Assembly: GCA_023257625.1 (NCBI GenBank)
Contig: JALRBW010000027.1
Coordinates: forward strand, 1 to 43,724
DNA: 43,724 nucleotides
Origin: Flavobacteriaceae bacterium
Lineage (GTDB): Bacteria; Bacteroidota; Bacteroidia; Flavobacteriales; Flavobacteriaceae
Direction: 5' to 3'
Every line of letters starts with the position of its first letter. Position 1 is the first letter of the stretch. A program made the translations under genes and the position numbers. The notes under the pieces were generated by a model, which worked only from the letters and a program-made list of their open reading frames with translations, did no database searches and was not told the DNA's origin. Positions 177 to 43,463 of this stretch are shown in pieces.

Positions 177-260
177 CGGAGAGACAGGGATTCGAACCCT
201 GGCGACGGTTACCCGTCGACAGATTAGCAATCTGCTCCATTACCACTCTGGCACCTCTCC
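177..260 (-). tRNA. tRNA-Ser (anticodon GCU)
   Basis: The minus strand folds as a class II (long variable arm) tRNA. The acceptor stem GGAGAGG (260-254) pairs with TCTCTCC (184-178, one G-U pair), with discriminator G at 177. The anticodon arm is CAGAT-TGCTAAT-CTG, giving anticodon GCT, which reads AGC and AGU serine codons. The long variable arm contains GACGGGTAACCGTC, and the T arm is CAGGG-TTCGAAT-CCCTG. CCA is not encoded. A promoter lies just upstream and a terminator just downstream, so the tRNA appears to be transcribed alone. Confidence 0.97.
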
Positions 261-19836: not shown

Positions 19837-20590
19837 CATTTTACAACAAGAAGCATTATCCATCCACATTTTTGCGGATGGATTTTCTTTTTGTAGCCCA
19901 TCTCAAATCGACTTTACTCACACTCCTATAGGCGAAAAAGATTTTCAACCTGCTTTTGATGAGTTTTTTGCGTATCATAAAATACAGGCTGAAGCTACCT
20001 TACAAGTCATACAATTTGAATACCCCTCTACATTTGTTCCCAATGCCTTGTTTGATGAAAAACAAAAAGATAAATACAACAGCTTATATCAATCTATACC
20101 TGATAAGGTTCAAATAGAATTTGATACACTTAATGCCTTAAATATAACTAACGTATTTCCATTTTCCACTTCCCTGCTTTCTATTCTAAATAAATCGTCT
20201 TTATCCTTCTCACTGGTGCACTACAATACTCTATTGCTGGAATGGATTAGTAAACAAGAAGCGTCTTCTTCTCATCAACATCAAGTTTATGTTCATTTAC
20301 AAAAAAACACCCTTGATGTATTTTTATTTTCAAAAAGAAAATTTCTTTTTTCAAACCGCTACAGTATTAAAAATACAGATGAATTTTTATACTATTTATT
20401 TTTTATTGCTGAACAGTTTGATCTTCAAGACCAATTCGAACTTATATTTTTAGGAAACTACGTTCCCTTTTCAGCATACTATAAAGCAGCCTCCTCTTAT
20501 CATACTTCCCTCATACATATTGGTTCATCACTCGGTGAAAGTTTTGATTTAAGCCAGCACCCAGCCCCCTTTTTCATTCCTAATTCATAA
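19820..20590 (+). CDS. DUF3822 family protein
   Basis: A 256-residue protein that fits DUF3822, a Bacteroidota-specific family with a predicted actin-like/ASKHA fold (from memory of the family). Seen in sequence: alternating strands such as LSIHIFADGFSFC near the N-terminus, HHQ-type loops, and a C-terminal half with VYVHLQKNTLDVFLF and FELIFLGNYVPFS. The ATG at 19820 is preferred over a TTG three bases upstream. The gene overlaps its upstream neighbour by 17 bp, and its TAA overlaps the rsmD ATG (TAATG), indicating coupled translation. No assigned biochemical role; the fixed association with rsmD suggests, weakly, a link to ribosome assembly or simply operon conservation. Confidence 0.7.
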   Translation: MPNANSILQQEALSIHIFADGFSFCSPSQIDFTHTPIGEKDFQPAFDEFFAYHKIQAEATLQVIQFEYPSTFVPNALFDEKQKDKYNSLYQSIPDKVQIEFDTLNALNITNVFPFSTSLLSILNKSSLSFSLVHYNTLLLEWISKQEASSSHQHQVYVHLQKNTLDVFLFSKRKFLFSNRYSIKNTDEFLYYLFFIAEQFDLQDQFELIFLGNYVPFSAYYKAASSYHTSLIHIGSSLGESFDLSQHPAPFFIPNS

Positions 20591-21120
20591 TGCGAATTAT
20601 ATCAGGAACACATAAGGGACGACGTATTCAAGCGCCAAAAAAACTGCCCGTAAGACCCACTACAGATCGAGCCAAAGAAGGACTTTTTAATATACTACAG
20701 CACAGAATAGAATTTTCAACCTCCCGGGTACTTGATTTATTTTCAGGAACAGGAAACATGAGCTATGAATTTGCTTCGCGACATTGTATTGATATAATGG
20801 CGGTTGATCAAAATTTTCACTGTGTACAGTTTATCAAAAAAACCGCTGTTGAATTAAAGTTATCCATTGATGTGGTTCAAAGTGAAAGCTTAAATTTTTT
20901 AGAAAACACTGTAAAAATATACGATATCATTTTTGCAGACCCACCTTACGATTTTGAAACTGCTCAATACAATGCGCTTATACACCTTGGAAGAGAGCGA
21001 ATAGATAGCGATGGGCATTTAATTATAGAACACTTTGAAAAGGTAGAATTGGATAACCAACAGGGTTTTGATTTTAAAAGGGCTTATGGAAATAGCAATT
21101 TTTCTTTTTTTAAAAAGTAA
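20590..21120 (+). CDS. rsmD: 16S rRNA (guanine-966-N2)-methyltransferase RsmD
   Basis: A 176-residue class I SAM-dependent methyltransferase that modifies G966 (E. coli numbering) of 16S rRNA in the small-subunit head. Diagnostic segments are the start MRIISGTHKGRRI, RPTTDRAKEGLFNIL, the SAM-binding LDLFSGTGNM, and the catalytic ADPPYDF (motif IV). Length is typical. It overlaps DUF3822 by one base and converges on the RNase P RNA gene, ending about 25-30 bp from it. Confidence 0.94.
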   Translation: MRIISGTHKGRRIQAPKKLPVRPTTDRAKEGLFNILQHRIEFSTSRVLDLFSGTGNMSYEFASRHCIDIMAVDQNFHCVQFIKKTAVELKLSIDVVQSESLNFLENTVKIYDIIFADPPYDFETAQYNALIHLGRERIDSDGHLIIEHFEKVELDNQQGFDFKRAYGNSNFSFFKK

Positions 21121-21144
21121 AATGTAAGTTAGGGACAGCTCCTT

Positions 21145-21439
21145 AAAAAAGCAGGCCGATAAGCCGGATTCTGTCGAGTCTTATCATTTATCTGGATGTA
21201 AAATTACTTTTACATTCTATCCGCCTACCCATCTACATTGAACGAGCAATTCTTAATTGTAGAACTATTTGGCGTTTCACCGCATAGAGTTTACCTGATT
21301 TCACTACAGCCGAACTGTACTTGCTTTCTGTTGCACTGGTCCGCTTTTTTCAAAGGACGGGTGTTACCCGCTATGCTGCTCTATGGTGTCCGGACTTTCC
21401 TCTATTTCTTAAAAGAAATAGCGATAAGATAGCCTGCTG
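21145..21439 (-). ncRNA. rnpB: RNase P RNA (bacterial type A)
   Basis: The minus strand contains the universal RNase P RNA blocks: GAGGAAAGTCCGGAC near the 5' side, CAGTGCAACAGAAAGCAA, the GGTGAAAC region, GATGGGTAGGCGG, and the 3' block GACAGAATCCGGCTTATC. Outer helix P1 forms between AGCAGGC (21438-21432) and GCCTGCT (21156-21150), then a TTTTTT run (21151-21145 side) ends the transcript, so P1 may double as the terminator stem. The RNA cleaves tRNA 5' leaders together with RnpA. At about 295 nt it is compact compared with E. coli (377 nt). The 5' end is fixed by an upstream promoter; both ends are accurate to a few bases. Confidence 0.95.
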
Positions 21440-21441
21440 GT

Positions 21442-21527: not shown

Positions 21528-22604
21528 ATGGAATCGTTTGTAGTATCGGCATTAAAATACCGTCCAAAAAGCTTTGATGCTGTAGTGGGTCAAGAAAGCA
21601 TTACCCATACCCTAAAAAACAGTTTAGCTACCAACCAATTGGCCCAAGCTCTCCTTTTTTGCGGTCCTCGAGGTGTTGGCAAAACCTCATGTGCTAGAAT
21701 TTTAGCCCACCAAATTAATGGAGGCGACGAAACAAGTACTGCTGATTTTTCTTTTAATATTTTTGAATTAGACGCTGCATCCAATAACTCGGTTGAGGAC
21801 ATACGGAAAATCAACGAACAAGTCCGTATTCCACCTCAGGTAGGGACACACAAAATTTACATTATCGATGAGGCTCACATGTTATCTAACGCAGCATTTA
21901 ATGCCTTTTTAAAAACACTTGAAGAACCTCCGAAGCACGTCATTTTTATACTAGCTACTACAGAAAAAAATAAAATAATCCCTACAGTTTTATCTCGTTG
22001 TCAAGTTTATGATTTTAAGCGAATCTCGGTAAATGATATACAAAAACATTTGGTAGGTATCGCCCAAGATCGGGGGTTAACCTTTGAAGAAAATGCCCTT
22101 TATTTAATTGCCCAAAAAGCCGAAGGAGCGCTACGTGATGCCCTGTCTATTTTTGATCGTATGGTAAGCTTTACCAAAGGCAAACTAACTTCAGCATCTG
22201 TAGCCGATAATTTAAACCTTCTCGATCAAAAAACGTATTCCGATTTAGGTAAACAAGTTGCTTCACACGATATTCCTTCTTTACTGATTTCATATGACTC
22301 TTTACTTAAAAGAGGTATTGACCCCGCTGAATTTATAAGAGGTCTTGGAGATTATTACCGAAACCTTATGATGGCAAAAGATCCAAAAACCTTAGCTCTA
22401 TTAGAAGTAGGTGAATCTATAAAAACAGCGTATCAAAAAGATACCGACTCTTTGTCTACGACCTATCTTTTAGATGCCATAGAAATTATAAATAACTGTG
22501 AAATACACTATAAAAATGCTAGAAACAGAAGAGTCCACGTTGAATTGCATTTAATGCAGCTTGCCTCCCTCCATTTTAATGGAGAAAAAAAAAAGGATTC
22601 TTGA
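21528..22604 (+). CDS. dnaX: DNA polymerase III gamma (N-terminal part of tau), frame ends at slippery site
   Basis: The zero-frame product has 358 residues: the AAA+ clamp-loader motor that loads the beta clamp. Features are MESFVVSALKYRPKSF, Walker A GPRGVGKTS, Walker B IIDEAHML, LKTLEEPP, the SRC motif (VLSRCQVYDF), and domain III ending near HLMQLASLHFNGE. The four zinc cysteines of E. coli/Bacillus DnaX are absent, as I recall for other Bacteroidota. The frame reads through an A10 run (22585-22594) as EKKKDS and stops at 22604. Reading one base back continues for another 650 bp, so this zero-frame protein corresponds to gamma and the shifted product to tau. ATG 21528 is chosen over an in-frame TTG nine bases earlier. 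Confidence 0.93.
   Translation: MESFVVSALKYRPKSFDAVVGQESITHTLKNSLATNQLAQALLFCGPRGVGKTSCARILAHQINGGDETSTADFSFNIFELDAASNNSVEDIRKINEQVRIPPQVGTHKIYIIDEAHMLSNAAFNAFLKTLEEPPKHVIFILATTEKNKIIPTVLSRCQVYDFKRISVNDIQKHLVGIAQDRGLTFEENALYLIAQKAEGALRDALSIFDRMVSFTKGKLTSASVADNLNLLDQKTYSDLGKQVASHDIPSLLISYDSLLKRGIDPAEFIRGLGDYYRNLMMAKDPKTLALLEVGESIKTAYQKDTDSLSTTYLLDAIEIINNCEIHYKNARNRRVHVELHLMQLASLHFNGEKKKDS
22585..22594 (+). promoter_or_regulatory. dnaX A10 frameshift/slippage site
   Basis: Ten consecutive A's read GAA AAA AAA AAG in the gamma frame and contain A AAA AAG, the same heptamer used for -1 frameshifting in E. coli dnaX. A -1 shift, or one extra A added by polymerase slippage, joins NGEKKK to KGFLIPPSYYKDN in the tau frame. 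The gamma stop is 8 bases past the run. GGAG lies immediately upstream, and a small hairpin (GTCTT 22612-22616 with AAGAC 22623-22627) follows. A sequencing error in the homopolymer would give the same picture. Confidence 0.75.
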
Positions 22605-23254
22605 TCCCACCGTCTTACTATAAAGACAATCTCATTACCCCAGTATCAATTCTAAAAAATGAAGTTTTTCAAATCCTCGATAATGTTGAAGAATCAATAC
22701 CATCACCCTATCAAAATGAAAAGGATAAGGAAGAAATTTCTATTGTTGAAGAACCCAAACCTGTTTTAATTACCAAAAAAGAATTCGACCCCAATAAACC
22801 CGTTTCTGGTTTATCGCTTTCCAGTATTGCTTTTAAAAAGACAAATAATAAAACAAAAATAGAACCTACTCATGTTGAGGAATTACCCTCTACCTCTTTT
22901 GATCAAAAAACTCTTGAAAAATTTTGGTCGCTCTATGCCATTAATTTAAAAAAAGAGGGGAAAAATAATCTTGCTTCAATTTTTACAATGCAAGTACCTG
23001 AATTAGGAGAGGAAAATAAGGTAAAATTCCGTATTGCAAACGAAATGAATAAGGGTGAAATCACTAGAGAATTAGAATATTTTCTGCCTTATTTACAAAA
23101 AAAATTAAATAATTATAAGATTAATATTGAATTTGAAATAAGTGAAAATGTACAAACTGAAACAGCCATTACTCCAAAAGAAAAATATGAGTATTTGGTA
23201 AAAATCAATCCACATTTAGAGACCTTACGTTCTACATTTGATTTAGATTTTTGA
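22601..23254 (+). CDS. dnaX: Tau-specific C-terminal extension of DnaX (-1 frame)
   Basis: Open reading frame of 217 codons in the -1 frame relative to the preceding dnaX segment; the open frame actually begins within the A10 run. It has the layout of the tau C-terminal part in Flavobacteriia: a low-complexity, charged linker (about residues 15-95 of this piece), a helical domain (LEKFWSLYAINLKKEGKNN), and the family ending KYEYLVKINPHLETLRSTFDLDF-like (here positions 23180-23254). It has no credible independent start (TTG at 22601 only) and no promoter, so I read it as translated only after frameshifting at 22585-22594. In E. coli this portion binds polymerase core and DnaB; the same role here is inferred. 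Confidence 0.82.
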   Translation: MIPPSYYKDNLITPVSILKNEVFQILDNVEESIPSPYQNEKDKEEISIVEEPKPVLITKKEFDPNKPVSGLSLSSIAFKKTNNKTKIEPTHVEELPSTSFDQKTLEKFWSLYAINLKKEGKNNLASIFTMQVPELGEENKVKFRIANEMNKGEITRELEYFLPYLQKKLNNYKINIEFEISENVQTETAITPKEKYEYLVKINPHLETLRSTFDLDF

Positions 23255-43062: not shown

Positions 43063-43457
43063 GGGGTCGACTGGTTTTGACAGCAGGACCCATGAAATAG
43101 TAAGCAAGTCGAGCGCTGAATAACAGCTCGTGAATCTCATTTTTCAAAGCTTTAAATGGCGAGAATAACTACGCTCTAGCTGCATAATAACTGAATTATA
43201 GTAAGTTAATGCCAAGTCTCGGCTAGGCCGAGAAGCTGGATGTCTCTAAGCAGCCCTTGTTGACGGCGGTTTGTATTGAGGCACCATAAAAGTCAACATC
43301 GAAACACAGCAGCGTCGGTTGTGTTTTTCAATAAAGATGCTAAGGTGTAGATGGGCAGGTTTCGGTCAGTCTATATTCGAAAATCATACGGAATCTAAAC
43401 TTGTAGAAAGCTATTTAATGGCTTGTTTGGACGCGGGTTCGAATCCCGCCGACTCCA
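43063..43457 (+). ncRNA. ssrA: tmRNA (tag GENNYALAA)
   Basis: A one-piece transfer-messenger RNA of 395 nt that frees stalled ribosomes and tags the unfinished protein. The acceptor stem pairs GGGGTCG (43063-43069) with CGACTCC (43450-43456); discriminator A at 43457; CCA is not encoded. The T arm GCGGG-TTCGAAT-CCCGC precedes the 3' end. The mRNA-like part runs GGC GAG AAT AAC TAC GCT CTA GCT GCA (43158-43184), followed by two TAA stops, giving the tag GENNYALAA. Pseudoknot stems are visible, for example TCTCGGCTAGGCCGAGA near 43217-43233. The terminator follows six bases after the end. Confidence 0.97.
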
Positions 43458-43463
43458 CTTTAA

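What the first reader, a model, noticed from the sequence alone, without database searches (positions are those of the whole stretch)
22585..22604. dnaX split by a -1 frame change at an A10 tract: programmed gamma/tau production
The clamp-loader motor ends EKKKDS-stop just after ten A's, while the -1 frame goes on for about 650 bp with a tau-like C-terminal domain and no credible start of its own. The run contains A AAA AAG, the E. coli dnaX heptamer; a small hairpin follows 17 bases later and a GGAG precedes it. Either ribosomal -1 frameshifting or RNA polymerase slippage (as known for Thermus dnaX) would make both gamma and tau. One extra A would restore a single frame, so a sequencing or assembly error must be excluded. 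As I recall, related Flavobacteriia usually carry an uninterrupted dnaX with a similar GEKKK junction, which would make this a lineage-specific change.
Basis: partly seen in the sequence, partly recalled or inferred. Interest (0 to 1): 0.7.

Follow-up and report, generated by a model that had tools for sequence, protein, structure and literature searches.

The report
Hairpin-flanked slippage site in dnaX
The gene for a DNA-replication clamp loader carries a run of ten A's, kept in most relatives examined and often sitting right behind a small RNA hairpin, at which the RNA copying machine probably stutters so that one gene makes two proteins.

Summary
dnaX gamma (21528-22604) closes just after A10 (22585-22594); the tau part is open in the -1 frame to 23254, and both halves hit one gamma/tau model. 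It is no assembly error: 22 of the 31 other same-genus genes analysed are split at the same A10.

Nor is it lineage-specific. Of 209 fetched genes of the class, 198 carry A9-A14 (143 exactly A10) at this border; in a second class sample centred on Paraprevotella 22 of 30 do, its nearest kin mostly not. The register varies: of the 198, tau is in the gamma frame in 103, at -1 in 85, at +1 in 6, undetermined in 4. A tree of 193 needs 28 changes, 19 forced by well-supported branches.

Not found in the papers I could search: the bases touching the run fold into a hairpin (window 22569-22584). It ranks in the top 5% of same-gene windows in 31 of 38 family genera and in 15 of 20 loci of the second sample, peaks at the run, and covaries.

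Best reading: RNA polymerase slippage, probably hairpin-assisted. Ribosomal frameshifting fits worse but is not excluded. Split A10 dnaX was published in 2013. No RNA or protein data were seen.

The parts
21528..22604 (+). dnaX gamma frame (358 aa, the templated product): AAA+ clamp-loader motor, lid and domain III
   Evidence: NCBIfam NF011531 E 9.9e-161 and TIGR02397 E 1.4e-108; Pfam PF13177, PF22608, PF12169
22569..22584 (+). inverted repeat CTCCAT-TTTA-ATGGAG, a 6-bp RNA hairpin directly touching the A run
   Evidence: MFE -5.9 kcal/mol for the 22-nt window; rank 0.010 among windows of the same gene and 0.010 against synonymous recodings; pair counts in the genus
22585..22594 (+). A10 slippage tract
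   Evidence: A>=9 at this border in 198 of 209 fetched loci of the class and 22 of 30 of a second class sample
22595..22604 (+). gamma tail (last codons and TGA) closing the 0 frame 7 nt after the run
22595..23254 (+). tau C-terminal part in the -1 frame (219 aa after the run)
   Evidence: 22601-23251 matches positions 474-612 of 614 of the same gamma/tau model NF011531, E 3.1e-19; homologous to tails of uninterrupted relatives, e.g. L026 6.6e-41, L276 1.1e-36
   Evidence: of five relatives printed kept only in L007; downstream folding rank 0.158

Best explanation
dnaX here is one gene that makes two clamp-loader subunits. RNA polymerase copies the A10 run while holding a pure rA:dT hybrid about as long as the run, so the transcript can slip and A's are added or dropped. 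Transcripts with ten A's give gamma (EKKKDS-stop). Transcripts with a net gain of one A (or loss of two) bring the -1 frame into register and give tau. The hairpin at 22569-22584 would form in the RNA exit channel just as the run fills the hybrid, melting its upstream end and promoting realignment, as proposed for hairpin-dependent slippage in bacterial insertion sequences. Over most of the class the run is kept while the templated register wanders, because slippage can make both products from any register. Shown: anatomy, conservation of run and hairpin, covariation, repeated register changes, closely spaced stops. Inferred: that slippage occurs, its efficiency, that the hairpin stimulates it, and that both proteins are made. 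The confidence below is for slippage; for slippage helped by the hairpin it is about 0.6.
For: A>=9 in 198 of 209 loci, A10 in 143, also in loci of 50-63% GC; a ribosomal heptamer needs only 7 (recalled). All three registers occur: 103 fused, 85 at -1, 6 at +1, 4 undetermined; 28 changes on a 193-row tree, 19 forced. In 103 fused genes both other frames close early: -1 within 30 nt in 101 (p 3.7e-15), +1 in 92 (p 2.4e-13); in the second sample both close within 30 nt in 19 of 19. -1 ribosomal shifting gives no reason for the +1 stop. Hairpin touching the run: 27 of 32 genus and 46 of 56 family loci in the top 5% of their gene; 31 of 38 with one genome per genus, 19 of 38 at p<=0.05 against synonymous recoding; second class sample 15 of 20 and 6 of 20. 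Mean z at the run -3.7 (family), -3.0 (second sample), and +0.6 and +0.1 six bases further up. In 50 family rows 20 double-changed cells in 7 of 8 pairs; 0 of 500 shuffles reach the cells paired or the double-changed cells. None of 20 other A>=10 runs of this genome has an upstream hairpin in the top 5%.
Against: No transcript, read or protein data. Among split genes tau is at -1 in 85 of 91, which -1 ribosomal shifting also predicts. In the window's own genus the third frame does not close unusually early (median quantile 0.668). Five genus members that keep A10 lack a good hairpin (L013, L031, L034, L035, L217), so it is not essential. Genus covariation alone is weak: 2 double changes, reached by 16-20 of 500 shuffles. 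The hairpin is uneven: 19 of 83 order, 7 of 25 first-sample class and 0 of 14 other-phylum-level loci in the top 5%, and against synonymous recoding only 6 of 20 in the second sample. The run itself is missing in 8 of 30 loci there. Hairpin-driven slippage in Roseiflexus IS630 deletes a base, whereas this register needs a gain. P-values ignore shared ancestry.
Confidence: 0.78

Rival explanations
1. E. coli-type -1 programmed ribosomal frameshifting on A AAA AAG: ribosomes slip back one base and read on into tau.
For: The heptamer is present and in phase. 85 of 91 split genes have tau in the -1 frame. A GGAG lies upstream and a small stem downstream. Ribosomes are reported to slide on A stretches (title and abstract start of PMC4363877, listing).
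Against: Runs are mostly kept at 9 or more though 7 suffice; 6 split genes have tau at +1, one more in the second sample; +1-frame stops are close in fused genes. No conserved downstream structure in the family (1 of 38 loci in the top 5%). The GGAG touches the run instead of standing about 10 nt upstream (spacing recalled) and is the hairpin's arm; Flavobacterium rarely uses Shine-Dalgarno sequences (abstract start of PMC8710568, listing). A hairpin abutting the shift site attenuates -1 ribosomal shifting (abstract start of PMC6321510, listing).
Confidence: 0.14
2. Slippage on the A run alone; the hairpin is irrelevant or serves something else (mRNA stability, a DNA-level constraint).
For: Thermus slips on A9 (passages) with no required hairpin (recalled). 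Five genus loci and 64 of 83 order loci have the run without a top-5% hairpin.
Against: Position-exact peak at the run in the family and in the second class sample, synonymous-codon bias and covariation in the family. Both registers carry it (family: 21 of 27 fused, 23 of 27 split).
Confidence: 0.2
3. Two separate polypeptides: gamma terminates and ribosomes restart on the tau tail at the TTG overlapping the TGA.
For: TTG 22601 overlaps TGA 22602 in the window.
Against: 1 of 23 split genes of the genus has any such start; the tail is fused to gamma in 103 of 198 loci.
Confidence: 0.03
4. Sequencing or assembly error, or a decayed pseudogene.
For: Draft genome and a homopolymer; L027 has A11 where its near twin L022 has A10. 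The tail changes more than gamma (67 of 219 codons nonsynonymous against 18 of 352 between L006 and L007).
Against: The same split at the same A10 in 23 of 32 genus genes; the tail is still constrained in the -1 frame (differences 41, 31, 85 at codon positions 1, 2, 3) and keeps homology to fused tails.
Confidence: 0.02

Closest known systems
Split two-ORF dnaX of Antonov et al. 2013 (NAR, PMC3711429; passages read)
   Same: Two ORFs, -1 offset, tau needs recoding; nine of 17 genes have ten A's; transcriptional slippage proposed for these
Thermus thermophilus dnaX slippage (Larsen 2000, not read; described in passages of PMC1088944 and PMC5009743)
   Same: A-run at the gamma/tau border, nearby stops in the other frames, both products from one gene
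   Different: There tau is the templated frame and gamma needs slippage; in the window gamma is templated. The fused relatives have the Thermus arrangement
Stem-loop-mediated slippage: Roseiflexus IS630 (Penno 2015, not read; passages of PMC5009743) and IS1447 (PMC6211511, passages)
   Same: Hairpin directly 5' of the slippage motif; IS1447 has a stem-loop before A9
   Different: Those are transposase genes; IS630 uses T5C5 and loses a base. Here it is a chromosomal replication gene with A10
E. coli dnaX -1 ribosomal frameshift (passages)
   Same: A AAA AAG, gamma and tau
   Different: Roles reversed, no conserved downstream stem, no upstream element at the usual spacing

Membership tests
dnaX (DNA polymerase III gamma/tau) | Clamp-loader motor with domain III, and tau C-terminal part | tested here: met
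   Gamma and tail hit opposite ends of NF011531; PF13177, PF22608, PF12169. Neither half alone reaches that full-length model's cut-off (536.6 and 69.2 against 685 bits)
Split A10 dnaX (Antonov 2013) | Two ORFs, tau at -1, poly-A at the junction | tested here: met
Thermus-type transcriptional slippage | Run of at least 9 A or T at the border | tested here: met
   A10
Thermus-type transcriptional slippage | Nearby stops in both non-tau frames | tested here: inconclusive
   Met statistically in fused genes of the class; in split genes of the window's genus the third frame is not specially close
Thermus-type transcriptional slippage | mRNA with heterogeneous A-run length | not testable with these tools
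   No RNA data
Stem-loop-mediated slippage (IS630/IS1447 type) | RNA hairpin directly 5' of the slippage motif | tested here: met
Stem-loop-mediated slippage (IS630/IS1447 type) | Slippage depends on the hairpin | not testable with these tools
   Needs a reporter assay
E. coli-type dnaX -1 PRF | In-phase A AAA AAG | tested here: met
E. coli-type dnaX -1 PRF | Conserved downstream stem-loop | tested here: not met
   1 of 32 genus and 1 of 56 family loci in the top 5%; no dip in genus or family windows up to +60
E. coli-type dnaX -1 PRF | Shine-Dalgarno-like element about 10 nt upstream of the heptamer (spacing recalled) | tested here: not met
   GGAG touches the run, 3 nt from the heptamer

The most novel reading that the evidence does not exclude
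Most of the class Bacteroidia carries, in an essential replication gene, a dedicated slippage element built like an intrinsic terminator: a hairpin abutting a homopolymer of about 10 A's that fills the RNA:DNA hybrid. It sets the gamma:tau ratio so robustly that the genomic reading register has become nearly neutral and has flipped at least about 19 times. (Probability raised from my first 0.5 because the second class sample, shows the same abutting hairpin.)
Probability: 0.55. Interest if true: 0.78.

Novelty: new variant of a known kind. Interest (0 to 1): 0.6.

Why it matters
If true, dnaX of a large part of a bacterial class depends on RNA polymerase slippage, and many annotated 'frameshifted' and 'intact' dnaX genes are the same gene in different registers, so automatic annotation would miss tau in one set and gamma in the other. 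It would give a chromosomal, replication-gene case of hairpin-assisted slippage with many natural variants (hairpin present or lost, run 9-14, three registers, run lost near Paraprevotella), making the role of an exit-channel hairpin directly testable.

Tried and rejected
Assembly error (rejected: shared by many genomes). Downstream frameshift stem (no conservation in genus or family). Restart at the overlapping TTG (1 of 23). Lineage-specific invention (rejected).

Limits found. The run is not universal. Within the first class set 11 of 209 lack A>=9: L194 and L200 (A8), L215, L218, L245, L292, L294 and four of five reduced genomes L295-L299. In the second class sample 8 of 30 lack it, 6 of them among the 7 loci nearest to Paraprevotella. 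Of the named loci, 19 of 32 Bacteroidota have it (two others end before the junction; the other misses mostly carry Bacteroidales-group names) and 2 of 48 non-Bacteroidota. Of 30 other-phylum-level loci 14 have it; that choice put split ones first, then about one per family, and two of them end at or near the junction.

Rows dropped or chosen: same-genus G025 (gene cut by the contig; 32 of 33 matches kept). 13 of 106 order-level matches not fetched (9 are 0.6-Mb genomes). 1 of 28 same-class matches (G322, partial) not fetched. L298 dropped from the tree (identity under 40%). Two order loci with N near the run dropped from the folding test (83 of 85). Covariation was first counted on 46 of 56 family loci, where I had left out four ill-fitting rows of the common codon phase by eye; one search repeats it with them (50 of 56; the other six have another phase) and is the count I use. 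In one search L359 and L370 were left out as genomes already in the first set (L227, L225). The 22 A>=10 runs of the own genome include dnaX and one at a contig start that had too little upstream sequence; 20 were folded.

Full report
What is there. The window (contig C71 of a 1.93-Mb, 75-contig draft genome) holds dnaX at 21528-23254. The 0 frame gives a 358-aa gamma ending EKKKDS just after ten A's at 22585-22594; the -1 frame stays open to 23254. The halves match opposite ends of one NCBIfam gamma/tau model, 1-370 and 474-612 of 614, and the tail is homologous to tails of uninterrupted relatives. Between the window and its nearest relative (L007) the tail changes most at third codon positions of the -1 frame (41, 31, 85 at positions 1, 2, 3), so it is a coding frame under some constraint, though it changes more than gamma.

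Not an error. One search covered 38 genomes of the genus; 33 have the gene and 32 reach the junction. All 32 carry the run, 31 with exactly ten A's and one with eleven; 23 are split with tau at -1 and 9 are uninterrupted. On the gamma tree the uninterrupted ones fall in three places within the genus: L026, L027 and a clade of seven, not all branches between them being starred. Reading the junctions, L026, L028 and L029 keep A10 but lack the two bases (GG in most, GA in some) that follow it in split genes.

Not a lineage-specific change. I fetched junctions from family, order, class and phylum. A run of A>=9 lies at the border in 32 of 32 genus, 56 of 57 family, 85 of 93 order and 25 of 27 class loci, that is 198 of 209; 143 have exactly ten. 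In codons 1-320 of all 239 genes such runs occur 6 times in 228,141 nt. It is kept in loci of over 50% GC too, for example L173, L209, L210, L237. A check made while revising this report, with a Paraprevotella gamma as query over 247 genomes of the class, gave 30 further loci: 22 have the run, and 6 of the 7 nearest to Paraprevotella do not. So the run is widespread in the class but not universal. The register differs: of the 198, 103 fused, 85 with tau at -1, 6 at +1 (L149, L249, L256, L160, L170, L298), 4 undetermined; of 20 new loci in the second sample 14, 4, 1 and 1. A FastTree tree of 193 first-set rows needs 28 changes of register, at least 19 forced by starred branches; it has long branches and local support only, so 19-28 is approximate.

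Slippage or ribosome. Antonov et al. take shifts in both directions within a cluster as the mark of transcriptional slippage (passage of PMC3711429, seen cut at its start); here both occur, though 85 to 6. In fused genes the -1 frame closes within 30 nt in 101 of 103 and the +1 frame in 92 of 103, both earlier than at matched positions of the same genes (one-sided p 3.7e-15 and 2.4e-13, uncorrected for kinship); in the second sample both non-tau frames close within 30 nt in 19 of 19 (no control run there). This is the Thermus pattern of nearby stops in the non-tau frames (passages of PMC1088944 and PMC5009743). In split genes with tau at -1 the gamma stop is within 30 nt in 85 of 85, while the third frame shows only a weak effect overall (p 0.0004) and none in the genus. 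So slippage is well supported for the class and likely, not proven, for the window.

The hairpin. The 22 nt before the run were folded. In the genus 27 of 32 and in the family 46 of 56 rank in the top 5% of windows of their own gene; against synonymous recodings with the gene's codon usage 22 of 32 and 33 of 56 reach 0.05. With one genome per genus (loci) it is 31 of 38 and 19 of 38. Order (19 of 83), first-sample class (7 of 25) and other-phylum-level loci (0 of 14) are weaker, but in the second class sample 15 of 20 rank in the top 5% and 6 of 20 beat synonymous recoding. The place is exact: mean z for the window touching the run is -3.0 (genus), -3.7 (family), -0.85 (order), -1.4 (class) and -3.0 (second sample), and six bases further up +0.6, +0.6, -0.1, -0.2 and +0.1. 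Downstream windows to +60 show nothing in genus and family and mild dips (to -0.6) in the class. A second, weaker upstream dip (windows ending 36-48 nt before the run) was not followed up. The commonest family stem is 8 bp (CTCTATCA..TGATGGAG type); the window's genus reaches the same 3' arm with a 5' arm nearer to it (CTCCAT..ATGGAG). In 50 family rows 7 of 8 pairs have double changes, 20 cells; of 500 shuffles 0 reach the cells paired and the double-changed cells, 2 the pairs, 1 the score and 12 the pair types; slid versions stay below except for tied pair types. In the genus alone covariation is weak. The codon at the stem's start is CTC in 26 of 32 genus genes, against 10% of leucine codons in their gamma bodies. 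Twenty other A>=10 runs of this genome have no upstream hairpin in the top 5%; two rank 0.06.

How it may work. A hairpin next to the hybrid in the RNA exit channel is proposed to melt the hybrid's upstream end and drive realignment in a Roseiflexus insertion sequence (PMC5009743 passages); IS1447 has a stem-loop before an A9 run and slips both ways at about 16% each (PMC6211511 passages). The window matches that anatomy with A10. Slippage on 9 or more A's or T's is described as going both ways, with insertions dominant for the Thermus run in E. coli (PMC6260861 passages), which suits the commonest split register (tau needs one extra A). A hairpin abutting a shift site attenuates -1 ribosomal shifting (abstract start of PMC6321510, listing), which speaks against the ribosomal reading. 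Against the hairpin role: several loci keep the run without it, and IS630 loses rather than gains a base.

Novelty. Split dnaX with ten A's and a slippage proposal is in print (PMC3711429, main-text passages; its supplementary figure was not available). I found no paper on an upstream hairpin at dnaX, on class-level conservation, or on register changes in searches of the held open-access library; I read passages or listings only, and Larsen 2000 and Penno 2015 were not read. I therefore call it a new variant of a known kind.

Noticed in passing
window 21144-21440 (-): Bacterial class A RNase P RNA, divergent from dnaX and between an RsmD-like methyltransferase gene (20590-21120) and dnaX.
   Followed up: partly
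window 43063-43460 (+) and 177-260 (-): tmRNA gene and a tRNA gene by Rfam.
   Followed up: no
L245 (G370): A Flavobacteriaceae dnaX in which no A>=7 run is left at the border, yet gamma still ends there and tail-like codons follow in another frame: loss of the slippage site or assembly collapse.
   Followed up: partly
L345-L347, L349-L351 and L055: Paraprevotella and its nearest relatives have uninterrupted dnaX without the run: the slippage site seems lost in that branch.
   Followed up: partly
L051, L054, L056, L058, L059, L060, L061: Loci named Bacteroidales or kin with dnaX frames of 374-384 aa and no A>=9 run: possibly gamma-only genes or another arrangement.
   Followed up: no
L326, L329, L332, L336, L337, L338, L343: Other A>=10 runs of the same genome lie in open frames of 144-461 codons without upstream hairpins; other slippage genes are possible.
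   Followed up: no
window about 22527-22548 and equivalents in relatives: A second, weaker folding dip in windows ending 36-48 nt before the run, in genus, family and the second class sample.
   Followed up: no
L358, L372, L185, L209, L287, L236: Strong hairpins of unrelated sequence at or within a few bases of the run in other families, perhaps independent gains.
   Followed up: partly
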